A stretch of DNA of 46,318 nt from a virus, in IMG/VR virus record IMGVR_UViG_3300042914_003711, positions 1 to 46,318 of that record. One strand, given 5' to 3'. A program made the position numbers and the translations under genes. Of the stretch, positions 14,497-41,267 are shown one piece after another. Below the pieces are notes generated by a model. That model was not told where the DNA came from. It did not search any database and saw only the letters and a program-made list of their open reading frames with translations. Position 1 is the first letter of the stretch, and each line of letters opens with the position of its first letter.

Positions 14497-14548
14497 TTAT
14501 TTGTCGGAGACAAGATGAATTCCACGAATTAATTTCATAATAATTCAT
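14477..14548 (-). CDS. Second diverged leader mini-ORF, 23 aa
   Basis: It starts at ATG 14548 and encodes MNYYEINSWNSSCLRQ, again of the pattern Y-(N/Y)-(D/E)-(L/I)-x-SW-x4-LR seen in the downstream gene and the other mini-ORF. It ends inside the start of the 147-residue gene. A still shorter trace (MNEWNSSRN) lies further upstream near 14674. Whether these are translated is unknown. Confidence 0.35.
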   Translation of the reverse strand: MNYYEINSWNSSCLRQINENGKL

Positions 14549-14879
14549 TTCAATTTCGTAAACCTAAATCGGAGACTGGAACTAGACCAACTACTTAAAT
14601 CATTATAATTTTCCATTTTCATTGGCTTGCATGAATTCATTTTAGTTTCTAGATGAGTTCCACTCATTCATTTTAATTTTGTTTTATTTATTTTATTTTT
14701 TTTTTATTCTAACTCACCGGCGACATGTGACACGGGATGGCTCGACCACCTCTCACCCCCCTACGGGGGGTTGAGAAGGTGTTTCGCCTGTACATCCGGG
14801 GAAGTACACATGATCGACAGGGGAAGTACAGAGGAAATGGGAGTTTCGCCCGTCGGTTTCCCCTGTTGAACCGTGAGGT
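14500..14879. other. Noncoding hairpin-rich block upstream of terminase (possible pac/cos region)
   Basis: Apart from the mini-ORFs there is no gene here. The right part (14715-14885) is GC-rich. It holds a strong hairpin (CTCA-CCCCCC/GGGGGG-T-TGAG, 14752-14775), a second hairpin, and repeated GGGGAAGTACA (near 14797 and 14819) and CGCCCGTCG (near 14848 and 14895). The left part is A/T-rich with duplicated gene-start sequence. A noncoding, structured block just upstream of terminase genes is where packaging sites often lie; that role is inference. Confidence 0.35.
14545..14622 (-). CDS. Mini-ORF duplicating the start of the next gene, 25 aa
   Basis: ATG at 14622 begins MKMENYNDLSSWSSSSLR, matching the start of the 147-residue gene (MKMENYNDLNSWKCTNLR) at residue and partly at base level. 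It then ends after 25 codons at a TGA overlapping another ATG (ATGA at 14548-14545). It could be a diverged remnant of a tandem duplication, or a leader peptide. Confidence 0.4.
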   Translation of the reverse strand: MKMENYNDLSSWSSSSLRFRFTKLK

Positions 14880-14884
14880 TCAAC
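14865..14884. other. Perfect 8-bp stem hairpin with GTGA loop
   Basis: GTTGAACC (14865-14872), loop GTGA, GGTTCAAC (14877-14884). On the plus strand the loop is of the GNRA type. No U-run follows on either strand, so it is not a simple intrinsic terminator. It overlaps the 3' end of the gene that stops at 14880. Confidence 0.6.
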
Positions 14885-15311
14885 CGTTGGCTTCGCCCGT
14901 CGAGGATGTTGCCCGAGCCTTGCGCTTTGGTGCATTAGTGATTTCAGTGAACTGATTCATCAATTGTCCAAATGAAGCGTTTAATGCACGTCGCAATTGG
15001 TCTGCATCAACCGAAGCCCAATTAGCTTGTTCCGCAATCAAAACTTCCATAGATGGATTCTCGACACCAAACAAGGTGAGTTTGCGAATCCCCTTCTTTC
15101 CAGTAGCAACTGTGAGTGTTCCGAGAATTTCTGTGACTTCAGCACATGAAGTTGCGTTTGGAAACAGAGTGTCAAAACCCTTGATTTGAGTTTTGAGAAT
15201 AGGTCCGGCAACGTCCCAATCCACTCTTGAAAGAGCATTTGCTAATTTGCTCCACTTTTGGATCGTCGATTGTCGAAATGTTGATTGAGTTTGAGTTTGA
15301 GTGTTTTCCAT
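14880..15311 (-). CDS. Unrecognised protein of the GC-rich island, about 143 aa
   Basis: No family is recognised. From ATG 15311 (GGAAATGATT upstream) it encodes a Gln/Thr-rich N-terminus (MENTQTQTQSTFRQST) and a helical body with WSKLANALSRVDWDVAGP and LRRALNASFGQLMNQFTEI. The C-terminus is basic, Ala/Lys/Arg-rich (NAPKRKARATSSTGEANG). The open frame extends further upstream (ATG 15431, then a Pro/Lys-rich stretch with QKKSRPNPTHK). However, the promoter at 15441-15470 would start transcription near 15434, making the longer forms leaderless. It is the last gene before the hairpin block and terminase module. Confidence 0.5.
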   Translation of the reverse strand: MENTQTQTQSTFRQSTIQKWSKLANALSRVDWDVAGPILKTQIKGFDTLFPNATSCAEVTEILGTLTVATGKKGIRKLTLFGVENPSMEVLIAEQANWASVDADQLRRALNASFGQLMNQFTEITNAPKRKARATSSTGEANG

Positions 15312-15440
15312 AATCATTTCCGTTTGTTGCCCTATGCCTACTAACGTAGGCGGGGCGGGATTTTTTGCGTTCCCACTTTTGTGGGTGGGATTAGGCCGGG
15401 ATTTTTTCTGTTTGGGCTTTATCGTTCCCATGACTTCTTT

Positions 15441-15470
15441 ATAGTACCACACTCAATTTTTGGTTGTCAA
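15441..15470 (-). promoter_or_regulatory. Sigma70-like promoter for the gene ending at 14880
   Basis: On the minus strand TTGACA (15470-15465) is followed after 18 bases by TACTAT (15446-15441), then TAAAG. The -35 box is perfect. It stands just upstream of the gene at 14880-15311 and downstream of the terminator at 15697-15729, so this gene and perhaps the terminase module have their own transcription start. Confidence 0.6.
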
Positions 15471-15534
15471 GAGTTTTCACGGAATTTTACGAAAATTTCT
15501 CTATCCGGGATTTTTGGTTGTCAATGGTTTTCAC
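15457..15534. repeat. Direct repeat around a -35 box (two 24-bp copies)
   Basis: 15457-15480 and 15511-15534 match at 22 of 24 positions, each containing TTGACAACCAAAAA on the minus strand. The centre spacing is 54 bp. Only the downstream copy has a good -10 box, so the upstream copy may be a weaker second promoter or a binding site. Confidence 0.6.
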
Positions 15535-15696
15535 GAATTTTTTTTCTGGTCGGGGTTTTTGGTTTGTGTTTTGGTTGATTCGATTGTTTTGAAATTTTTT
15601 GTAAAAAATATTTTTCAAGTCGAAACTCTTCCGCTTAAATTCTGTCAGTTTGGCTGGAGCCAGGGTGCATTTACGTGTCAGTAACTAGGTTTTAAA

Positions 15697-15729
15697 CTAA
15701 AAAGACCCCGGTCAAAAGTTGACCGGGGT
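15697..15729 (-). terminator. Strong intrinsic terminator after the 15753 gene
   Basis: An 11-bp perfect stem (15705-15715 with 15719-15729) with loop AAG is followed on the minus strand by TCTTTTTAG. It ends the leftward early transcript of the GC-rich island. The 220 bases between it and the promoter at 15470 hold AT-rich palindromes but no gene that I can support. Confidence 0.85.
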
Positions 15730-15752
15730 TGAGATCGACTAGAGAGTCGGAG

Positions 15753-16103
15753 TTAACTTGCCGGACTCTCAAGTCTAGCTAGAGCATCCTTGAGTGTCTG
15801 CACCATGCTCCAGTAGACTATGTAGGTGACCCCATCTTCGTTCATCACGTAGAGGTCGGAATCGGGATTTACTTCCACGGTTAGATAGTCGTTCTTATCT
15901 GGCTCCAATCGTAATGTAACGTCATCGAACGGGCAATCTTCGACGACTCTCTCAAGTTGTTTTCGCGTGATATTCGCGTTTTCCAACAGGGAATGGGAGT
16001 CCACGTAGAATGCCCAAACTCCAGGGACTACCCACCATCGTTCATTAATTCCACGGGTGTTGCTGACGGAGTGTATTGATCGTTGATTTTGTTTCATGTT
16101 CAT
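15753..16103 (-). CDS. Unrecognised protein of the GC-rich island, about 116 aa
   Basis: No family is recognised. It is acidic overall, with a WWVVPGVWAFYVDSHSLLENA segment beginning after the N-terminus, a VVEDCPFDDVTLRLEPD region and a C-terminal helix (YWSMVQTLKDALARLESPAS). Start choice is open: ATG 16103 or 16097, or TTG at 16142, which would overlap the upstream gene. A strong terminator follows. Codon choice is richer in G and C than in the capsid genes. Confidence 0.5.
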   Translation of the reverse strand: MNMKQNQRSIHSVSNTRGINERWWVVPGVWAFYVDSHSLLENANITRKQLERVVEDCPFDDVTLRLEPDKNDYLTVEVNPDSDLYVMNEDGVTYIVYWSMVQTLKDALARLESPAS

Positions 16104-16120
16104 TCTAGTTGAGGGTGTAA

Positions 16121-16360
16121 TTATGCCCCCAGGGTTAACCAAGGGAAGGGTTCTGGGGCCGGACGGGACGGTTCGAATTTTGCTTCACGTCCCTTTGCCC
16201 AGAGCGTAAGCCATGAGGCGAGGTTTTCCACGTCATCATGCTGTAGATTCCCCCCGCGACCGGGGGGAAGTTGACTTGTGAATTGCGCGTAGAGATCATG
16301 GCAACCTTTGTTGCTCAGGCCCGTGAAGGCTTGAAGTTCAGCCAATTGCGCCGGAGTCAA
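16121..16360 (-). CDS. Unrecognised small protein, 79 aa
   Basis: No family is recognised. It starts with TTG at 16360, whose last two bases are shared with the TGA stop of the upstream gene (TTGA overlap), indicating coupled translation. The N-terminal part is a helix pair around LAELQAFTGLSNKGCHDLYAQF, and LASWLTLWAKGREAKF follows. The C-terminus is Pro-rich (PSRPAPEPFPW). It belongs to the four-gene leftward unit that ends at the terminator near 15.7 kb. Confidence 0.5.
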   Translation of the reverse strand: MTPAQLAELQAFTGLSNKGCHDLYAQFTSQLPPGRGGNLQHDDVENLASWLTLWAKGREAKFEPSRPAPEPFPWLTLGA

Positions 16361-17277
16361 TTTTGCTCACCTTCCACCATTTCGGATGCTTCACCTTCCA
16401 CGGATTCAACGTCAGCACTAGTGATTTGTTCTGGCGCGTTCTTTTCGCTCTTTTTTGGCGGCATGTTTGCCCCTGTCCGCTTGTTTGGGAATCCAAGGGC
16501 ATTTTTAGTTACGGGCATGAATTCGCGCAAGGCATAGTTGACATGCCCGAAGTTCTTTTTGGTTTGCGTCAGCATGTCCAAAATTGCGGGTTCCACTGTT
16601 GCATTCCAAAGTGCCTTCAATTGGGCCGCTGTTTCGTCGTCAACACGACCTGCTGACCCCTCGGGGTTATTTACTCTATCCCAAGTTTTCAGCGTGCGTG
16701 CGAGGTCATCAGACACTTGCAATTGACTTTCTGCGAGAGTCGCGTAGTCTGCGAAAACTTGGAACCACAAGTCAAGATTATCGGAGTCAATTTCGCCAAG
16801 GTTTACAAGATCGTCTGCAAGCTTCCCAAAAAAGCCCTGAACCCAACGAAGTTGCGCTCCAGACACTTTAGTTCTCTTCTGGCTCTTCTCGTCTAGCGTT
16901 CCCAACAGGACTGAACCGAAAACTGAATTGTCGAATTCTGCCTGATCTGCTTTATCCAATTTGGAACGTTGGAATTCCAAGAACGTGATGAACCAAGTAG
17001 CAGACGGTTTCAAGGTTGGCAGATTGGCCCAGATCATGTCCTTAATTGCGTCATCAATGTCATCATTGGTCAAGGTGAGCAGGAACGAATTGGCACGTCC
17101 TTTAATCCAGGCCGGGAACGCCTGAATCAGCCAAAGTCCAGTCTTCGGACATCGCGCAATCTCCTTCACGTCATTTCGACTCACCGCAGTGGAATGTTCA
17201 CCACCGTCAAAAAGTTGAGACAATGCCAATGTTGGCAGGGTTACGATAGTTTCAAGTTTCGTTGTTTGTTTAGTCAT
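16357..17277 (-). CDS. Unrecognised island protein, about 306 aa
   Basis: No family is recognised. The product is soluble and mostly helical, rich in Trp and Leu in the middle (LRWVQGFFGKLADDLVNLG, LDLWFQVFADYATL), with an acidic C-terminal tail after PPKKSEKNAPEQ. The segment ETIVTLPTLALSQLFDGGEH near the N-terminus and LTQTKKNFGHVNYALREF near residue 250 are its clearest landmarks. I chose ATG at 17277 because AGGGAACC precedes it; ATG at 17313 would add 12 residues. Base composition differs from the AT-rich phage average, suggesting a separate origin. Confidence 0.55.
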   Translation of the reverse strand: MTKQTTKLETIVTLPTLALSQLFDGGEHSTAVSRNDVKEIARCPKTGLWLIQAFPAWIKGRANSFLLTLTNDDIDDAIKDMIWANLPTLKPSATWFITFLEFQRSKLDKADQAEFDNSVFGSVLLGTLDEKSQKRTKVSGAQLRWVQGFFGKLADDLVNLGEIDSDNLDLWFQVFADYATLAESQLQVSDDLARTLKTWDRVNNPEGSAGRVDDETAAQLKALWNATVEPAILDMLTQTKKNFGHVNYALREFMPVTKNALGFPNKRTGANMPPKKSEKNAPEQITSADVESVEGEASEMVEGEQN

Positions 17278-17345
17278 TGTTTTAGGTTCCCTTAGAAAGG
17301 GCAGGTACCGCAAGCGGAAGTCTCTCGCACGATTCGCACGCCAAC

Positions 17346-17558
17346 CTAGTTAAAAAAATACTTCAAGGCTTGAATATCATCTAAGCATGTCTGCATACTC
17401 CTTTGCGCCAACTTCAATCTACTGATTCGAATATTCATCTGGCTTTCAGGGTCTTTTTCAGACCAGGTTCTAGCGTTATTTACTACTTTCTCCAAGTGGA
17501 TATCCAATTGATCCATAAGTGTATGCAAGTCTACGAGTTCTTTTTCCCATCTATTCAT
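17346..17558 (-). CDS. Small helical protein, first gene of the leftward arm, about 70 aa
   Basis: No family is recognised. It is entirely helical and probably coiled-coil: EKELVDLHTLMDQLDIHLEK, then SRLKLAQRSMQTCLDDIQAL. ATG at 17558 is preceded by AAGGACAAAACGAAC, a good ribosome site; the longer ATG at 17579 lies almost at the predicted transcription start. As the first gene after the divergent control region it could be a regulator or host-takeover protein, but no DNA-binding motif is visible. Confidence 0.5.
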   Translation of the reverse strand: MNRWEKELVDLHTLMDQLDIHLEKVVNNARTWSEKDPESQMNIRISRLKLAQRSMQTCLDDIQALKYFFN

Positions 17559-17581
17559 GTTCGTTTTGTCCTTACACATCT

Positions 17582-17610
17582 ATTATACGTCGAACCTGGT
17601 TCAACTTTAC
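17582..17610 (-). promoter_or_regulatory. Leftward promoter -10 box with overlapping palindrome
   Basis: TATAAT (17587-17582, minus strand) stands 24 bases upstream of ATG 17558. Just upstream is the interrupted palindrome GAACC-T-GGTTC (about 17593-17603), which would cover the spacer and -35 area and could be an operator. No clear TTGACA lies at the right distance, so the promoter may need an activator. Confidence 0.5.
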
Positions 17611-17627
17611 GTTATTTTAGTCAAATT

Positions 17628-17643
17628 TTAGGATAAATCCTAA
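17628..17643. promoter_or_regulatory. Perfect inverted repeat TTAGGAT-AA-ATCCTAA
   Basis: Two 7-bp arms are separated by AA, about 50 bp upstream of the leftward -10 box. Partial copies (TTTAG) flank it on both sides. It is suitable as a dimeric repressor or activator site. Confidence 0.5.
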
Positions 17644-17723
17644 CTTTAGGTAAATTTACTGGTTTTGAGCCTATTTTGATCAAAAGGGTAGCTTTTTGGA
17701 ATTGATTTAAGGTAATCGCGCGT

Positions 17724-17739
17724 CACGCGCGTGCACGCG
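17724..17739. promoter_or_regulatory. CpG palindromes, first copy of CACGCGCGTG
   Basis: CACGCGCGTG (17724-17733) overlaps a perfect 12-bp palindrome CGCGTGCACGCG (17728-17739). The same 10-mer recurs at 17912-17921. Such sequences are very rare in this AT-rich genome, which suggests protein binding. Confidence 0.5.
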
Positions 17740-17788
17740 TTATTATAAAGGTCAAGACGAAAGTGTTAGATAAAATCGCTTCAAAGTG

Positions 17789-17808
17789 TTAACTAGTCTA
17801 CTAGTTAA
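17789..17808. promoter_or_regulatory. 20-bp perfect palindrome TTAACTAGT-CT-ACTAGTTAA
   Basis: Two 9-bp arms are separated by CT, in the centre of the divergent noncoding region between the first leftward and first rightward genes. It is the longest perfect palindrome noted there and is a good candidate for an operator or for part of an origin. Confidence 0.55.
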
Positions 17809-17909
17809 GTGCAGCGTACTGTTACGTAAGTGGATTAATCAATATCTAAATTCCGTTAGGTGAGTTCGACATGTTCGCACCTGTGTTTTAATTTAATTCT
17901 AAATATAAA

Positions 17910-17933
17910 CGCACGCGCGTGTGGGGGTTTTTT
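17910..17933 (+). terminator. Second CACGCGCGTG copy followed by a T-run
   Basis: The palindrome at 17912-17921 can fold as CGCAC/GTGTG around GCGC and is followed by GGGG and six T on the plus strand. It may serve as a terminator as well as a binding site; the stem is short. Confidence 0.35.
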
Positions 17934-17968
17934 ATTTATTTTGTTTTTATTTGGAAGTAAAACCTGAC

Positions 17969-17991
17969 GGCCCCGCTTCGCGGGGTTTTTC
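17969..17991 (+). terminator. Intrinsic terminator upstream of the rightward promoter
   Basis: CCCCGC-TTC-GCGGGG (17971-17985) is followed by TTTTT on the plus strand. It isolates the early rightward promoter from upstream transcription. It may also be the 3' end of a short untranslated RNA from the 17.7-17.97 kb interval, where no gene is present. Confidence 0.75.
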
Positions 17992-18024
17992 TCAAATACT
18001 CAAATAACATAAGAAATTTAAAGG

Positions 18025-32778: not shown

Positions 32779-32863
32779 CCCCCGGTGGTGAAATTGGTAA
32801 ACACAGTGGACTTAAAATCCATTGACTTATGTCTTGCGAGTTCGAGTCTCGCTCGGGGGACCA
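32779..32863 (+). tRNA. tRNA-Leu (anticodon UAA)
   Basis: This is an 85-base cloverleaf. The acceptor CCCCCGG pairs with TCGGGGG (last pair G-U), A is the discriminator, and CCA is encoded. The anticodon stem GTGGA/TCCAT encloses loop CTTAAAA, with TAA at 32813-32815. A long variable arm is typical of class II tRNA-Leu. The T arm is GCGAG-TTCGAGT-CTCGC. The A discriminator fits leucine. It would read UUA, a codon common in this AT-rich genome. Confidence 0.92.
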
Positions 32864-33703: not shown

Positions 33704-35974
33704 ATGTCAAAAATTCGAGATATTAACAATTGCGCTAATTGCATTATGGGGAAGGTTGATAATTTTCTACCCCGCGATTTACTAGGTTTCAATCAAAAAG
33801 ATAGCAAAAAAGTTAAGTACCTCTTCGTTCTTGAAGCTACCGAAAAATCTAAAGCACGTAGTTTACAAAGCACACTAATTCGAACTCTCAACGCTAACAA
33901 CGTTTCACAAGAAGAATACGTAGTTACGTTTGTTTCATTATGTCACACACCAAAGCTACTAGAAGAAAGAATTACGCCCAATTGTGGTAACCATGTTCAG
34001 TTACTTATTAATCTTCACTCACCAGAAAGAATCATTTTTTGTGGTGAAAATACACTAAAGCATTCTCGTTGTGGAACAGTAGAAGATAAGTACAATTGGT
34101 TTAAATTGGATGGTGCAGACGCAATTGTAATTCAGCATGTTTCAGGTGTTATTACTCGACCTGACACATATAATCAATTTAGACGTGCAGTAGAAAAAGT
34201 AATTCGCGGCAGAGTTTTTGAAGGTTGGCCCGAAGATTATCTATTCATTGACACGCCTAAAAAGTTTTTAAGTTTTTACAAAGATAAAACTGAATGTTCA
34301 TTTGACATTGAAACTTACGCAGGTCTTGACACTTATTGTAACGCAGTTTCAATGGTAGGTAGTTACGGACCGGGATTTAAATGCCCCGTCGTAATAGATG
34401 GTCCGGTTTTAAGCGATCCAAAAGTTGTCGAATTCGTTAACACTTGTGACATCATTTTCTATGGTGTACGACAAGTTGAATTCGATGCTAAAGTTTTGTT
34501 TCACACTTTGGGATTAAACCCCAAGAATGTTGTTGACATTCGTGATATGGATTATGTTTTAAACGAAGTAGAAGCTAAAGATGCAAAACGTGACTTGGAA
34601 ACTTTAGCCGCGTTGTACTGTGACATTCCTTCTTGGAAAGAAGAAATGAAACCTTACATAAAAAACATTAGTTTAGCACCAAGAGAACTTCTACTAAAGT
34701 ACACCGCGTATGATGGTTATGCCAGTTATGTTTTAGCTAAACAAATTAAGGATGTTTTTTCTGAACGTGAAAGTCGTTTGTTTAATGATGTTATTTTTGT
34801 TCATAGTAACAATTTTCGACAAATGTCAAATGAAGGCATCACTATTGATGTTCCCTATTTCCACCAATTGCAAAATGAATTTGAATCGGAATTAGATGAA
34901 TTAAAAAAGAATCTCGACTTCAATCCTAATAGTCCCAAACAAACTTTAGAGAAACTTCAATCTGAACATCTAACTCTATTTGGTAGAAAAATTAGTGACA
35001 CTAATGCTACTACTCTTCAACAATTAGAATTAATCCATCCAGATAATGAAACACTTAGAAACATTTCTAAGTTCAGAAGCACTAAGAAGATGATCTCTAC
35101 TTATTGTGAGGGAATTCTGGATATCGAACAAGAAGGAAAAATTCACGTTGATTTTATTATGTCTGGAACTGTTACTGGGCGTCCGTCTAGTAGAAACATT
35201 AACATAATGAACATTCCGGTTCGAACTGAACAAGGCAAAAAGATCAAAAAGGGATTCATAGTTGATCCTCTTTACAACCATTTTGTCAGTTTGGATTATA
35301 GTCAACTTGAATTAAGGCTTGCGGCAATTGTTTCTAACGATGTTGTTTTGTTAGATTTGTTCAAAAAGGGAATTGATGTTCATGGTTATGTAGGTGAACA
35401 ATTCTTTGGAGCGTCTTATAATAGAGAAGAACACCGACCATTGTGCAAAAAGGGTGTGTTTACCGTACTGTACGGAGCTAGTAGAGACAATGTGGGATTC
35501 CAGATGGGAATATCACAGGCACTAGGACGCGCTTTCTACGATGCTCTTACAAAATCAATTTTCCCTGGGTTTGGTGCGTACATTAAAACCATTACAGATC
35601 AAGTCATTAATTACTTCCAAAAGCAAGATTCAATTATGAGTTGCCTAGAAATTCCTTATATGGATTCTGATCGTGTTAGAAGATTCCCATTTATCACAAG
35701 TAAAACATTAAAGGAATCTATTCGACAAGCTATTAACTCACCTATTCAAGGACGTGGAAGTGACTTTAATTTAGATAGACTACTTGCCGCCAGGAAAAGC
35801 GGATACGGTGGTTTACGTTTTACTGTTCACGATAGTGTCAATGGTTATTGCAACACGTTAGATGAACTATTGAAAATTCAAGAAATCATGCTAGTTAATG
35901 ATTATGAAATTCCTCTTATCGTTGAAGCACAATACGGACCAAATTGGGCCGAACAAGTTAAACTTGAAATTTAA
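33704..35974 (+). CDS. Family A DNA polymerase with N-terminal UDG-like domain, 756 aa
   Basis: This is the replicative polymerase. Residues 1-170 look like a uracil-DNA-glycosylase fold of the Fe-S type: C10-x2-C13 and C80-x13-C94 are present, but the active-site GEAPG-like loop is replaced by LEATEKSK, so it is probably non-catalytic. SPO1-type phage polymerases carry a comparable domain. A 3'-5' exonuclease follows: FDIETYAG (D201, E203), VRQVEFDAK and YTAYDGYAS. The polymerase motifs are A, LDYSQLELRLAA (near 530); B, RPLCKKGVFTVLYGAS (near 578, with K and F at the standard positions); and C, FTVHDSVNGY (near 705), where Ser stands in place of the usual Glu of HDE. No 5'-nuclease domain is fused. 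Confidence 0.9.
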   Translation: MSKIRDINNCANCIMGKVDNFLPRDLLGFNQKDSKKVKYLFVLEATEKSKARSLQSTLIRTLNANNVSQEEYVVTFVSLCHTPKLLEERITPNCGNHVQLLINLHSPERIIFCGENTLKHSRCGTVEDKYNWFKLDGADAIVIQHVSGVITRPDTYNQFRRAVEKVIRGRVFEGWPEDYLFIDTPKKFLSFYKDKTECSFDIETYAGLDTYCNAVSMVGSYGPGFKCPVVIDGPVLSDPKVVEFVNTCDIIFYGVRQVEFDAKVLFHTLGLNPKNVVDIRDMDYVLNEVEAKDAKRDLETLAALYCDIPSWKEEMKPYIKNISLAPRELLLKYTAYDGYASYVLAKQIKDVFSERESRLFNDVIFVHSNNFRQMSNEGITIDVPYFHQLQNEFESELDELKKNLDFNPNSPKQTLEKLQSEHLTLFGRKISDTNATTLQQLELIHPDNETLRNISKFRSTKKMISTYCEGILDIEQEGKIHVDFIMSGTVTGRPSSRNINIMNIPVRTEQGKKIKKGFIVDPLYNHFVSLDYSQLELRLAAIVSNDVVLLDLFKKGIDVHGYVGEQFFGASYNREEHRPLCKKGVFTVLYGASRDNVGFQMGISQALGRAFYDALTKSIFPGFGAYIKTITDQVINYFQKQDSIMSCLEIPYMDSDRVRRFPFITSKTLKESIRQAINSPIQGRGSDFNLDRLLAARKSGYGGLRFTVHDSVNGYCNTLDELLKIQEIMLVNDYEIPLIVEAQYGPNWAEQVKLEI

Positions 35975-36093: not shown

Positions 36094-36876
36094 ATGGAAC
36101 CAATTCAACAAAATCAAACTACTGAAATTGATGTTACCGAAATTCGTGCAATTAGTGATGCTAGGCAAAAACTGCAAAAGATGCGAATTCAGAATGGTAA
36201 TCGACTCGAAGCATATAAGGCTTTGATGACAGATGAACAATTGGACAAACTTAAAGAAAAGCCATTTTTTATTGATTTGTTTGAAGCGTTTACTATTCTT
36301 GAAAAGAAAGCAGATAAACGAATTGAAAAGGAAATGCGAAAGCATAATATGTGGAACACTGTAACTAGTGTTAGGGGATTAGGCCCAATTCTAGCGGCAC
36401 GACTTCTACTAAACATTGATATTCACCGGGCTAAAAATGCAGGAAGTTTGGTTAAATATGCAGGTTATGCAGTTAATAGAACAACCAATAAAGCAGATGG
36501 TAAAGTCAAGGGTGAAAAACTTTGTTACAATCAAGATTTGAAAGTCACTGTTTATTTAATTGTGTGCAGTTTCATTAAGGTCGCTAATTGCCCATATCGA
36601 CAAGATTACGATAATGCTAAATTGCGATATGAAGAATTGTATCCAGATAAACCTTCTGATCCTAAACTAGTTGATCCTAACAAGGTTTACAAAACTAAGG
36701 CACATAGACATCAAATGGCAATTAGAAAAGTAGCACGTTTGTTCCTTTGTCATCTTCACCAAGTTTGGTCTGAAAAAGAAGGTTTAGAAGTTCGACTTCC
36801 TTATGCTTTGGAACACTTGGGACATAACACTTTTATCTCTCCTCAAGAAAGAGGTTGGCCCGAAATAGAAAAATAA
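36094..36876 (+). CDS. Free-standing IS110-type (Transposase_20) helix-hairpin-helix protein, 260 aa
   Basis: Residues about 90-230 resemble the C-terminal domain of IS110/IS116/IS902 transposases. A helix-hairpin-helix (SVRGLGPILAARLLLNIDI) is followed by LVKYAGYAVNR, a KGEKLCYNQDLKVTVYLIV segment, and AHRHQMAIRKVARLFLCHLH. The N-terminal ~85 residues are a charged coiled coil (LEKKADKRIEKEMRKHNM); the DEDD RuvC-like nuclease domain of true IS110 enzymes is absent. The serine normally found before the GNxxLR-like helix is not apparent (TTNKADGKVKGEK). It is therefore probably a DNA-binding protein and not a transposase. Directly downstream is the 37-bp repeat array, a possible target. Confidence 0.65.
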   Translation: MEPIQQNQTTEIDVTEIRAISDARQKLQKMRIQNGNRLEAYKALMTDEQLDKLKEKPFFIDLFEAFTILEKKADKRIEKEMRKHNMWNTVTSVRGLGPILAARLLLNIDIHRAKNAGSLVKYAGYAVNRTTNKADGKVKGEKLCYNQDLKVTVYLIVCSFIKVANCPYRQDYDNAKLRYEELYPDKPSDPKLVDPNKVYKTKAHRHQMAIRKVARLFLCHLHQVWSEKEGLEVRLPYALEHLGHNTFISPQERGWPEIEK

Positions 36877-36919
36877 AACATTTTGAATTATAACGACTAA
36901 GTACATCTACTGGTGAAAA

Positions 36920-37651
36920 ATGAATTTAACGTGTCAAGTTAATCTATCCACTTTAAATGAATTGCACCTTGTAAGTAAATCTATGTCATCTATATGAATT
37001 GTTAGACACAAGTTAATCTATTTGCTCAAAAATGAATTGTACCTTGAAAGTAAATCTTGATCTCCTAAATGAATTAAACCAAGTAATTAAATATAAGTCA
37101 TGTAAATGAATTAAGTTCAAAAACTAAATGTGAGCTGTTAGAATGAATTGTACCCTGAGAGTAAATCTATCGAAAAAATGAATTTTACCTTACGAGTAAA
37201 TCTATGGCAAAGAAATGAATTGTAGTTTGAGATTAAATATGCGTCACCTAAATGAATTTAGGTTTGATATTAAATATAAGGAACTTAAATGAATTAAAAA
37301 AAACAAGAGTAAAAATGAATTATATTGTTGGATTAAATATACGGAACTTAAATGAATTGAAGATCGAATGAATTGTGACGACAATGAATTTCACATTGTA
37401 AGCTAAATGTTGTTTTGGGAAATGAATTACACATCGTAAATAAGATTTATGAGAACTAAATGAATTAATGAAACCAAGTAAATCTATTATCTTGGAATGA
37501 ATTAAGAAGGATAAGTAAATCTAAAATCACGTAATGAATTGAAGTTAGTAAGTAAATCTACTTGTGACGAATGAACTAAAGTGTAAAAGTTAATCTAACT
37601 TTTCCGAATGAGTTTAAAAGTGAGAGTAAATCTAATCTCACAAAACGAATT
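36920..37651 (+). repeat. 37-bp period tandem repeat array (21 units, two conserved boxes)
   Basis: Box 1, ATGAATT, occurs at 36920, 36957, 36994, 37032, 37069, 37106, 37143, 37178, 37215, 37252, 37289, 37315, 37352, 37368, 37384, 37422, 37460, 37497 and 37534. One-base variants are at 37571, 37608 and 37645. Fourteen of 21 intervals are exactly 37 bp, three are 38, and the others 35, 26, 16 and 16. Box 2, AGTAAATCTA (variants GTTAATCTA, ATTAAATAT, CTAAATGT), begins 17-18 bases after box 1. Bases between the boxes vary. Short units (37352, 37368) lack box 2. The period is close to 3.5 helical turns. No protein frame runs through it. Confidence 0.9.
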
Positions 37652-37654
37652 ATT

Positions 37655-37747
37655 ATGTTTAAAGCAAGCTATAAAGAAATCACAATCGCAATCTTAATGT
37701 CAGGAATCCTAATCGGATTCTTCTATATTGTAGGAGCAGTTCAATAA
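37655..37747 (+). CDS. Single-span membrane peptide, 30 aa
   Basis: ATG 37655, in the last partial repeat unit, opens a 30-codon frame: a basic start (MFKASYKEITIAI) and a hydrophobic helix (AILMSGILIGFFYIVGAV). The stop TAA is immediately followed by the next ATG (37748). Tight spacing and a clear membrane helix argue for a real small gene. Function is unknown; it may act at the host membrane. Confidence 0.5.
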   Translation: MFKASYKEITIAILMSGILIGFFYIVGAVQ

Positions 37748-37987
37748 ATGGAAATCAGTTTCACACCAGAAGAAGAAGAATATATTGATGCCGTCAGTAA
37801 ACTACTTGACAGAATCCCCGACACTTTAGAACTTAGAGTTAAGGACGAAAACCTTTATTTGATTAAAAAAGATAATGGACTTCCGACTATTTTATGTCGT
37901 ACTCCACTTTACTTAACAGACAGGTTCATAGAAACCTTTGACTTTCTTGGAAATCTCCGAAAATCTAAGCATGAAACAAACAATTAA
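37748..37987 (+). CDS. Unrecognised acidic protein, 79 aa
   Basis: No family is recognised. The N-terminus is acidic (ISFTPEEEEYIDAVSKLLDR), followed by LELRVKDENLYLIKKDNG and a C-terminal helix. It begins directly after the membrane peptide gene and overlaps the next gene by 17 bases, so it belongs to the late-early membrane-peptide cluster at the end of the rightward arm. Confidence 0.5.
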   Translation: MEISFTPEEEEYIDAVSKLLDRIPDTLELRVKDENLYLIKKDNGLPTILCRTPLYLTDRFIETFDFLGNLRKSKHETNN

Positions 37988-38869: not shown

Positions 38870-38906
38870 AAAAAAAGAACCCAGTTCGTTTGAACTGGGT
38901 TTTTAT
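38870..38906. terminator. Bidirectional intrinsic terminator between the converging arms
   Basis: CCCAGTTC (38881-38888), loop GTTT, GAACTGGG (38893-38900); flanking A and T residues extend the stem. Five T follow on the plus strand and a T-rich run (TTCTTTTTTT) on the minus strand. It terminates both the rightward arm and the lysis cassette. Confidence 0.88.
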
Positions 38907-39350: not shown

Positions 39351-39885
39351 CCTTATTTATGATATCTTCCCTAGTAGTCAAGAAGTAACGAAATGTTGTT
39401 CCGGGTACTCCGCTAGGTTTGTTCATTACTTCGAGATCAGTAGTACCTAACGCTTTGTACAACTCAAATCTAAACTCTCCCCACACCGAAGGCGGTAAAG
39501 TTTGGCATCCTTCGCTAGACGTCCCAGATGAGCCACCTCGATGCAAATTGATCCCAAAATATCCCGTGTCCTTGCCCCGGTTGTGCCTATCTACAGTAAC
39601 ATAACCATATTGTCGAAATGCCGAATAACCTCTTGGAGAACTTAATTTGTGTTTACCAGCTATGAAACTCCAAACACCCGGAATTAAGGTTGCCATTCCA
39701 TCAATTCTTTTGGAGGGATTAGTGTTAAATGGATAAATATTCATCCTATCTGGATAAACAATAATGGCGTAATCATCATATGTGTTTACGTCATTATCCA
39801 TTCTAATCCCTAATAAAAGAACACGGTTTACTTCAACACCACTTACTTTTAGAAATTCCCTAATTTTAATCTTGTTGATTCTCAT
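39325..39885 (-). CDS. L,D-transpeptidase-like murein enzyme, endolysin candidate, 186 aa
   Basis: The centre carries GYFGINLHRGGSSGTSSEGC, with H115 and C127 spaced like the His and Cys of YkuD-type L,D-transpeptidase folds (H-x(n)-S/T-x-G-C). It is followed by QTLPPSVWGEF, which I associate with phage murein-acting proteins of this type. The upstream part is beta-rich with MATLIPGVWSFIAGKHKL. In phages such domains are thought to cut or remodel peptide crosslinks; the present assignment as lysin rests on motif plus position next to membrane proteins. The start ATG 39885 overlaps the deacetylase stop (TAATG). Confidence 0.55.
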   Translation of the reverse strand: MRINKIKIREFLKVSGVEVNRVLLLGIRMDNDVNTYDDYAIIVYPDRMNIYPFNTNPSKRIDGMATLIPGVWSFIAGKHKLSSPRGYSAFRQYGYVTVDRHNRGKDTGYFGINLHRGGSSGTSSEGCQTLPPSVWGEFRFELYKALGTTDLEVMNKPSGVPGTTFRYFLTTREDIINKVGAFLESE

Positions 39886-41267
39886 TATTGCGTCACACTT
39901 ACTTGAGAAGCCATTGCTTCCCACTGGGAACGTGTAACTGGAATGATTAAACCAGCACCAATTCTAACAGCAATTTGTTCCATTAACTGTTCAAATCTTC
40001 GCAATGGGTAATCTGTAGCAACTGCGGGATTAGCATCCGAAGCGGCTGTGTCTAAAATATTATGAAATAGAAGTGAACAAGTAGAACCAGTAGCTATTGC
40101 TTTATCAACTACCGCCAAAGCAGAAGCAACACTAACAGTGTTAATAACTGGAAATGTTTTAATGTGATATTTAGAATCAATTATATTAGCTTGGTGTGTG
40201 CCAGAAGCGACACGAGCCAATTTAATATTGTTATCAGCTAAAATTGTCAAAGTGTTCGCATTATATCTTCCGTATGGATAACCAAGTAACATAGCTGATC
40301 TGGAATAGCCCCAACCTTGAAGCAATTCCATTGCATCTAAAATATCAACTTGTTGTTGAGCTAATGATCCTGTGTCTAAACCTGTGTTCGTTAATCCATG
40401 TGTTTTGGTGTGATTTGCAATGTCATCACCATCTGCGTAGAGTTTGTCATTATCGTCTCGTTTCCAGTAATTAGAATCCGAATCTAATAATTTATCAGTA
40501 ATGACATTGTGTGTCATTGGAATTCCAAGTCTACGACAAATTGGCACAGCCTTACGTAAAAATTCTATTCTGTTATCGTCTGTTTCGACAATTAAGAAAG
40601 CAGGTCCACGAGATTTTAAGTAAACGCCACTTAAATAAACTGCCAAAGCATTAGCATTAGTAGCATCAGCGCCAATTCTAAATTGCAGTCTAGCTAAAGT
40701 GTCAGAGTTTAATGCCACAGTTCCGCTAGTTGCTGAAACATCACTTGTAACAGTTGTTCCAATTGGGGCTGGCAAAACATAATCAGTTAAAAGTACTTCA
40801 ACCAATTTCCACGAACCTTGCATGATGCTTGGGTTGTATGTTAATGCGTTAGCACCATCAGTAGTTCTAATTAAGTGTGTTGTTAAATAAGAAGATGAAG
40901 GTGAAATTGGGGTTGTTGGAGAAGTGATTCCCTCTGTGTAAACCCAAAATTGTAAAACATTTTGGTACCCGCATCTTCCAGCAGTTCCACCAGGAGAAGG
41001 CATATTAAAGTACGCCGCTTGAGCCGTTCCATCTGCACGACTTAATTTAGCAACTGTTCCGGCAACTTTAGCCGCACTAGCACCACTACCTAGAGTAGTA
41101 GCATTAGTTAAATTGGCGCCAACAAAACCCGTCATTCCAGGTACGTTAGATAAATCCGAAAGTAAAACCCTCGGACCTAATTCCATTCCTTTTACCCTAT
41201 CAATTGCACTCACACTTGCTAATTGTGGGTTCTTATTATATTCAAAAATTTGATCTGAAGATTTCAT
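39885..41267 (-). CDS. Tail-associated polysaccharide deacetylase-like protein (CE4/NodB), 460 aa
   Basis: The first ~215 residues are a Ser/Thr/Gly-rich beta region (SPSSSYLTTHLIRTTDG, SDVSATSGTVALNSDTLARL) like a tail-attached carbohydrate-binding or lectin fold. The C-terminal half is a carbohydrate esterase 4 barrel: VETDDN near 229 (motif 1, normally TFDD), IANHTKTHGLT near 286 (motif 2, H-x3-H metal ligands), LGYPYGRYN near 331 (motif 3), and LLFHNI near 402 (motif 5). It would deacetylate host capsule or peptidoglycan sugars during adsorption. It follows fibre genes and precedes the lysis cassette. Confidence 0.7.
   Translation of the reverse strand: MKSSDQIFEYNKNPQLASVSAIDRVKGMELGPRVLLSDLSNVPGMTGFVGANLTNATTLGSGASAAKVAGTVAKLSRADGTAQAAYFNMPSPGGTAGRCGYQNVLQFWVYTEGITSPTTPISPSSSYLTTHLIRTTDGANALTYNPSIMQGSWKLVEVLLTDYVLPAPIGTTVTSDVSATSGTVALNSDTLARLQFRIGADATNANALAVYLSGVYLKSRGPAFLIVETDDNRIEFLRKAVPICRRLGIPMTHNVITDKLLDSDSNYWKRDDNDKLYADGDDIANHTKTHGLTNTGLDTGSLAQQQVDILDAMELLQGWGYSRSAMLLGYPYGRYNANTLTILADNNIKLARVASGTHQANIIDSKYHIKTFPVINTVSVASALAVVDKAIATGSTCSLLFHNILDTAASDANPAVATDYPLRRFEQLMEQIAVRIGAGLIIPVTRSQWEAMASQVSVTQ

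What the first reader, a model, noticed from the sequence alone, without database searches (positions are those of the whole stretch)
36920..37651. Array of 21 tandem units with a 37-bp period and two conserved boxes
The box ATGAATT occurs 19 times exactly and three times with one change in 730 bp; 14 of 21 spacings are exactly 37 bp. A second box, AGTAAATCTA or a close variant, begins 17-18 bases after each first box in most units. Since 37 bp is near 3.5 helical turns and the boxes alternate about every 18.5 bp, bound proteins would line up on alternating faces. Both boxes share a TNAAT core. Bases between boxes are free to vary. I know no phage iteron family with this design. It could be an origin, a centromere- or enhancer-like site, or a transcribed repeat RNA.
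Basis: partly seen in the sequence, partly recalled or inferred. Interest (0 to 1): 0.88.

Follow-up and report, generated by a model that had tools for sequence, protein, structure and literature searches.

The report
Phage TIGR guide-RNA array beside tasA
The repeat array is not a protein-binding DNA site but a TIGR array, a recently described set of short guide RNAs that an adjacent nuclease-less phage protein (TasA) probably uses to find and bind matching DNA; it is a clear new member of that known kind, with an RNA base pair that changes in matched fashion from unit to unit.

Summary
In detail: 19 exact ATGAATT boxes (shuffles: mean 0.46, max 3), 14 of 21 spacings exactly 37 bp. The interpretation changes. 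The array starts 4 nt after the stop codon of a 260-aa Tas protein gene (36094-36876): NCBIfam TIGR_Tas_endo, 171 bits versus cut-off 100; nearest solved structures are TasH-tigRNA complexes and TasR by sequence and by fold. The HNH/RuvC part is missing, so it is TasA-type. Units read edge repeat (9) - spacer A (9) - loop repeat (10) - spacer B (9), the dual-repeat TIGR architecture of Faure et al. 2025. Decisive for RNA rather than DNA sites: two loop-repeat bases are Watson-Crick partners in 19 of 19 units with all four pair types, at the place of the box C/D pair of TasR. No self-target was found; natural targets remain unknown. Most likely the array is co-transcribed with tasA, cut into about 37-nt tigRNAs, and each directs a TasA dimer to bind, not cut, DNA by pairing spacers A and B with opposite strands. 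New member of a known kind.

The parts
36094..36876 (+). tasA: 260-aa Tas (Nop / Transposase_20-type) protein without nuclease domain
   Evidence: NCBIfam NF052498 TIGR_Tas_endo E=3.4e-50; phmmer PDB TasH 5e-23, TasR 1e-18; Foldseek TasH 1.9e-11, TasR 2.4e-8; Pfam Transposase_20 5e-5
36881..37651 (+). dual-repeat TIGR array: 19 complete units (edge-A-loop-B) and 3 truncated units, closed by a final edge repeat
36881..36917 (+). first, degenerate unit (edge TTTTGAATT, A ATAACGACT, loop AAGTACATCT, B ACTGGTGAA), 4 nt after the tasA stop codon
36918..36926 (+). edge repeat, consensus RAATGAATT (example: unit labelled 36920)
36936..36945 (+). loop repeat, consensus RANTWAATN'T with N:N' Watson-Crick in 19/19 units (example: unit labelled 36920)
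37287..37312 (+). truncated 26-nt unit, loop repeat runs straight into the next edge repeat
37350..37381 (+). two 16-nt half-units (edge + 7-nt spacer), no loop repeat
37643..37651 (+). last edge repeat (AAACGAATT), followed at 37655 by a 30-aa membrane-type ORF
38875..38904 (+). strong bidirectional terminator-like hairpin, first good terminator downstream; would end the tasA-array operon

Best explanation
This is a TIGR-Tas system of the TasA type in a tailed phage. Shown: a Tas-family protein gene is followed at once by a same-strand array of edge repeat - 9-nt spacer A - loop repeat - 9-nt spacer B units, and the loop repeat conserves a base pair rather than bases. Inferred from the published family: the array is transcribed with tasA, cut in the edge repeats into about 37-nt tigRNAs, and each is held by a TasA dimer through its box C/D-like repeats; spacer A pairs with one strand and spacer B with the other strand of an adjacent DNA site. 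Because no HNH or RuvC domain is present, the complex probably binds and bends its target, blocking transcription or replication, most likely of competing mobile elements or host genes, without cutting (this last step is a guess).
For: Protein: NCBIfam TIGR_Tas_endo 171 bits vs cut-off 100; TasH and TasR are the only confident PDB matches by sequence and the best by fold, then the IS110-family IS621; the match starts at query residue 15 against TasH residue 69, so the N-terminal HNH part is absent. Array: 14 units of exactly 37 nt with two conserved blocks and two variable 9-nt blocks. RNA: loop positions 19 and 25 are Watson-Crick in 19/19 units with four pair types, reached by none of 200,000 permutations; of 666 column pairs only this one is paired in all 14 full units with several pair types. 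Context: array starts 4 nt after the tasA stop, no terminator between. Relatives: Tas genes in Microcystis phage Mvi-JY20, Salicola phage CGphi29 and IMG/VR contigs L056, L058 have 35-36-nt dual-repeat arrays next to them. Published: PMC12045711.
Against: No transcription or processing data. No natural target found: no excess of sites in the phage itself against three control geometries; sampled exact target searches in viral contigs gave no clear excess. The array is not followed directly by a strong rho-independent terminator, as TIGR arrays typically are; only a weak hairpin at 37702-37722. The permutation value overstates independence because units may be related by duplication; the three alternative pair types are at least three independent double changes.
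Confidence: 0.9

Rival explanations
1. Iterons / replication origin: an initiator or helicase-loading protein binds the boxes and opens the AT-rich DNA.
For: Tandem, regularly spaced AT-rich boxes near replication genes (DNA polymerase A gene ends at 35974).
Against: Loop-box covariation is not needed for protein-DNA sites; variable 9-nt blocks on both sides; Tas gene adjacent; GC-skew turning points are near 15 kb and 39 kb, not at 37 kb, and follow gene strand.
Confidence: 0.03
2. Centromere-like or ParB-type partition site, with the neighbour acting as a DNA-binding partition protein.
For: Some TasA loci are operonised with ParB-like genes (PMC12045711); a 246-aa ORF that I read as ParB-like lies between a 35-nt array and the Tas gene in L058 (not scanned with a profile).
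Against: No ParB or ParA domain in the neighbours scanned here; covariation says RNA.
Confidence: 0.03
3. IS110-family mobile element remnant: a shortened transposase with repeats.
For: Pfam Transposase_20, PHROG 'transposase' label, IS110 model 36.5 bits.
Against: IS110 model far below its cut-off of 140 bits while TIGR_Tas_endo is well above its own; no DEDD domain found; the array has dual repeats, not one bridge RNA.
Confidence: 0.02
4. TIGR array whose guides act on RNA (snoRNA-like) or as plain antisense regulators rather than on DNA.
For: Nop-fold kinship with box C/D snoRNPs; TasA lacks a nuclease; the target type is untested here.
Against: TasR did not act on RNA substrates (PMC12045711); spacers show no excess of near-complementary sites in E. 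coli rRNA (9 observed, 13.8 in shuffles), though the true host is unknown.
Confidence: 0.08

Closest known systems
TIGR-TasA dual-repeat systems (Faure et al. 2025, PMC12045711; e.g. Flavonifractor plautii FpTIGR)
   Same: Solo Nop-type Tas protein, adjacent array of two alternating 8-12-nt repeats and 9-nt spacers, period about 36-37 nt, partial edge repeats at the array ends.
   Different: AU-rich boxes (edge RAATGAATT, loop RANTWAATN'T) instead of the UG...CCA reported for TasR arrays; the loop pair changes identity among units of one array; 22 units (published arrays most often 5-15); no strong terminator right after the array. The FpTIGR repeat sequence itself was not available to compare.
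TIGR-TasH of Salicola phage CGphi29 (PDB 21kl, 9w04) and TIGR-TasR (PDB 9mty)
   Same: About 30% identical over the Nop part (TasH); same fold; dual-repeat array downstream of the gene. In the Salicola array the matching loop pair is G-C in 8 units, A-T in 1, mismatched in 2.
   Different: Those carry HNH or RuvC nuclease domains; this protein does not.
Tas locus of Microcystis phage Mvi-JY20 (PP438412)
   Same: Closest relative found (38% identity by tblastn); gene followed by a 36-nt dual-repeat array ending in a terminator-like hairpin.
   Different: G+C-rich repeats (TGCGAGCC / ACGAAACCC); no shared array sequence.
IS110-family transposases with bridge RNA (IS621, PDB 8wt9)
   Same: Shared Nop-like RNA-binding fold.
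   Different: DEDD recombinase domain and single bridge RNA are absent here.
VIPR systems (PMC13142463)
   Same: Virus-related RNA-guided system with a programmable repeat RNA.
   Different: By its abstract it uses alternating GGY/NN motifs and a Vipr protein; no such motif pattern in this array.

Membership tests
TIGR-Tas (dual-repeat) | Tas protein with Nop-type domain | tested here: met
   NCBIfam NF052498 171 bits vs 100; PDB TasH/TasR by sequence and fold
TIGR-Tas (dual-repeat) | Array of two alternating 8-12-nt repeats with about 9-nt spacers next to the tas gene | tested here: met
   edge 9, spacer 9, loop 10, spacer 9; array starts 4 nt after the stop codon
TIGR-Tas (dual-repeat) | Box C/D-type base pair within repeats | tested here: met
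   loop pair Watson-Crick in 19/19 units, four types; the edge pair A1-T6 hardly varies, so covariation cannot test it
TIGR-Tas (dual-repeat) | UG ... CCA box motifs (reported for TasR arrays; the paper says boxes can diverge in other arrays, so not defining for the whole family) | tested here: not met
   AU-rich boxes here
TIGR-Tas (dual-repeat) | Transcription and processing into about 36-nt tigRNAs | not testable with these tools
   needs small-RNA sequencing
TIGR-Tas (dual-repeat) | Tandem-spacer targeting of both DNA strands | not testable with these tools
   no natural target found; binding needs an assay
TasA subtype | No HNH or RuvC nuclease domain fused | tested here: met
   only Transposase_20 in Pfam; TasH match begins at TasH residue 69
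TIGR-TasParB variant | ParB-like gene in the tasA operon | tested here: not met
   no ParB among neighbours scanned with Pfam
Stem-loop TIGR array | Palindromic stem-loops instead of edge repeats | tested here: not met
   conserved edge repeats in all units; the whole array is no more structured than shuffles (z = +1.8)
IS110 transposase | DEDD catalytic domain plus Transposase_20; IS110 model above cut-off | tested here: not met
   36.5 bits vs 140 cut-off
Iteron origin | Replication start at the array, initiator binding | tested here: inconclusive
   GC skew does not turn at the array; no binding data

The most novel reading that the evidence does not exclude
A TIGR array in which the protein reads the loop box C/D pair only as a pair (any Watson-Crick combination works), and in which guides arise by unit duplication and spacer drift inside the array rather than by capture from invaders: near-identical spacers (for example GTACCTTGA/GTACCCTGA, AAGGAACTT/ACGGAACTT) exceed column-shuffled expectation (pairs with at least 7 of 9 equal: A 5 vs 1.2, p about 0.008; B 3 vs 0.35, p about 0.003).
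Probability: 0.3. Interest if true: 0.6.

Novelty: new member of a known kind. Interest (0 to 1): 0.42.

Why it matters
TIGR-Tas systems were described only in 2025, and how TasA acts, where spacers come from and what they target are open. This array, with 19 full guides and natural compensatory changes in the loop pair, gives in-sequence evidence for the RNA base pair and a hint of array growth by duplication, and offers a compact TasA to test for DNA binding without cleavage.

Tried and rejected
Self-targeting: spacer A + 0-2 nt + reverse complement of spacer B, up to 4 mismatches, against the rest of the window: 55 sites against 43, 56 and 69 in three control geometries, so no excess. rRNA targets: no excess of complementary sites in E. 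coli rRNA. Same array elsewhere: a 27-nt edge-spacer-loop pattern gave 44 viral contigs, all single matches, i.e. chance. Close relatives of the phage: none by megablast, by DNA polymerase, or by the Tas protein in viral or genome contigs beyond L056-L058. Rfam: only a tRNA. Whole-array RNA folding: no more stable than shuffles, as expected for solitary pairs held by protein.

Full report
1. Observation. ATGAATT occurs 19 times exactly and three more times with one change; 14 of 21 spacings are 37. In 1000 dinucleotide-preserving shuffles of the same stretch ATGAATT occurs 0.46 times on average and at most 3 times. The box is not confined to the array (19 further copies in the AT-rich 46-kb window), so density and regular spacing are the signal.

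2. Anatomy. Stacking the 14 full-length units column by column gives: R36 A37 A1 T2 G3 A4 A5 T6 T7 (edge, 9 nt), nine variable bases (spacer A, 8-16), R17 A18 N19 T20 A/T21 A22 A23 T24 N25 T26 (loop, 10 nt) and nine variable bases (spacer B, 27-35); the block borders are uncertain by one base. 9 + 9 + 10 + 9 = 37. Spacers are 9 nt in nearly all units (exceptions 7 or 10). A degenerate unit precedes the stated start (36881-36917), so the array starts 4 nt after the stop codon of the upstream gene. Three units are truncated: one of 26 nt and two of 16 nt that consist of edge plus a 7-nt spacer. In the 26-nt unit the TAAA of the loop repeat runs into the next edge; recombination between the similar TAAAT of loop and edge would explain such losses (inference).

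3. RNA signature. Loop positions 19 and 25 are complementary in every one of the 19 units that have a loop: G-C in most, T-A in four (37069, 37215, 37252, 37315), C-G in two (37106, 37384), A-T in one (37422, where the loop needs a slightly different register and reads AAATAAGATT). None of 200,000 permutations reached 19 of 19. Among all 666 pairs of columns in the 14 full units it is the only pair that is complementary in all units with several pair types. Units can be related by duplication, so this is at least three independent paired changes rather than nineteen. Protein-binding DNA boxes have no reason to conserve complementarity; an RNA pair does. In the TasR structure both repeats carry a box C/D Watson-Crick pair at what I take to be the corresponding place (PMC12045711; the correspondence is my alignment of repeats, not a structural result). 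The Salicola TasH array shows the same on a small scale: loop pair G-C in 8 units, A-T in 1, two mismatches.

4. Neighbour protein. The 260-aa product of 36094-36876 scores 171 bits (cut-off 100, E = 3.4e-50) with NCBI's TIGR_Tas_endo model and only 36.5 bits (cut-off 140) with IS110. In the PDB the only confident sequence relatives are TasH (5e-23) and TasR (1e-18). An AlphaFold2 model (mean pLDDT 79.7) matches TasH-tigRNA complexes best (E 1.9e-11), then TasR (2.4e-8), then the IS621 bridge-RNA recombinase (3e-3), with Nop5 weak. The part that aligns to TasH begins at TasH residue 69, so the N-terminal HNH domain is missing: it is TasA-like, and the 'endonuclease' in the NCBI name and the 'transposase' of PHROGs do not apply literally.

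5. Context. The window is a 46,318-base linear virus record with terminase, portal, major head protein, helicases and a DNA polymerase A: a tailed phage with no close relative in the collections searched. tasA and the array lie on the + strand after the DNA polymerase gene; small genes and a MazG-type gene follow, and the first strong terminator is a bidirectional hairpin at 38875-38904 where the opposing gene block ends. The array is therefore probably part of a longer transcript. GC skew turns near 15 kb and 39 kb with gene direction, not at the array.

6. Relatives. Tas genes elsewhere also have arrays: Microcystis phage Mvi-JY20 (36-nt units ending in a terminator-like hairpin), Salicola phage CGphi29, contig L056 (36 nt) and contig L058 (370-aa Tas, a ParB-like gene and a 35-nt array). 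In L057 and in mycobacteriophage BigPaolini (L011) no array was seen in the stretch fetched.

7. Mechanism. Shown: the genes, the dual-repeat anatomy and the conserved pair. Inferred from the published family: transcription, cutting within edge repeats into about 37-nt tigRNAs, a TasA dimer, spacer A and spacer B pairing with opposite strands of one DNA site, no cleavage because no nuclease domain. What the binding is for is unknown for all TasA systems (PMC12045711); blocking transcription or replication of competitors or host genes is the best available guess. No natural target was found (see tried and rejected).

8. Novelty. This is a new member of TIGR-Tas in a divergent phage. What is unusual is the AU-rich boxes, the unit-to-unit swapping of the loop pair inside one array (the 2025 paper describes repeats as conserved within a locus), the number of units (22, against most often 5-15) and the similarity between spacers of different units, which points to growth by duplication and drift. 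The last point is suggestive only.

Noticed in passing
window 37655-37747: A 30-aa membrane-type ORF (MFKASYKEITIAILMSGILIGFFYIVGAVQ) starts directly after the last edge repeat and abuts the next gene at 37748; a weak terminator-like hairpin (37702-37722) lies inside it.
   Followed up: partly
window 14500-18000: Region of higher G+C (0.40-0.50 against about 0.35) at the divergent junction of the two gene blocks, with the GC-skew minimum; candidate for foreign DNA or for the replication origin.
   Followed up: no
window 32779-32863: tRNA-Leu (TAA) gene among replication genes.
   Followed up: no
L058 360-1120: TIGR array of 35-nt period with about 18 units upstream of a ParB-like gene and a 370-aa Tas gene: a TIGR-TasParB-like locus in contig IMGVR_UViG_3300031673_000779.
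   Followed up: partly
L009 2971-4060: Microcystis phage Mvi-JY20 carries an unrecognised Tas gene (XAI95461.1, 'hypothetical protein') and an unannotated TIGR array with a terminator-like hairpin.
   Followed up: partly
   Followed up: partly
window 39885-41267: Polysaccharide deacetylase domain protein on the opposite strand, perhaps a tail or lysis enzyme.
   Followed up: no
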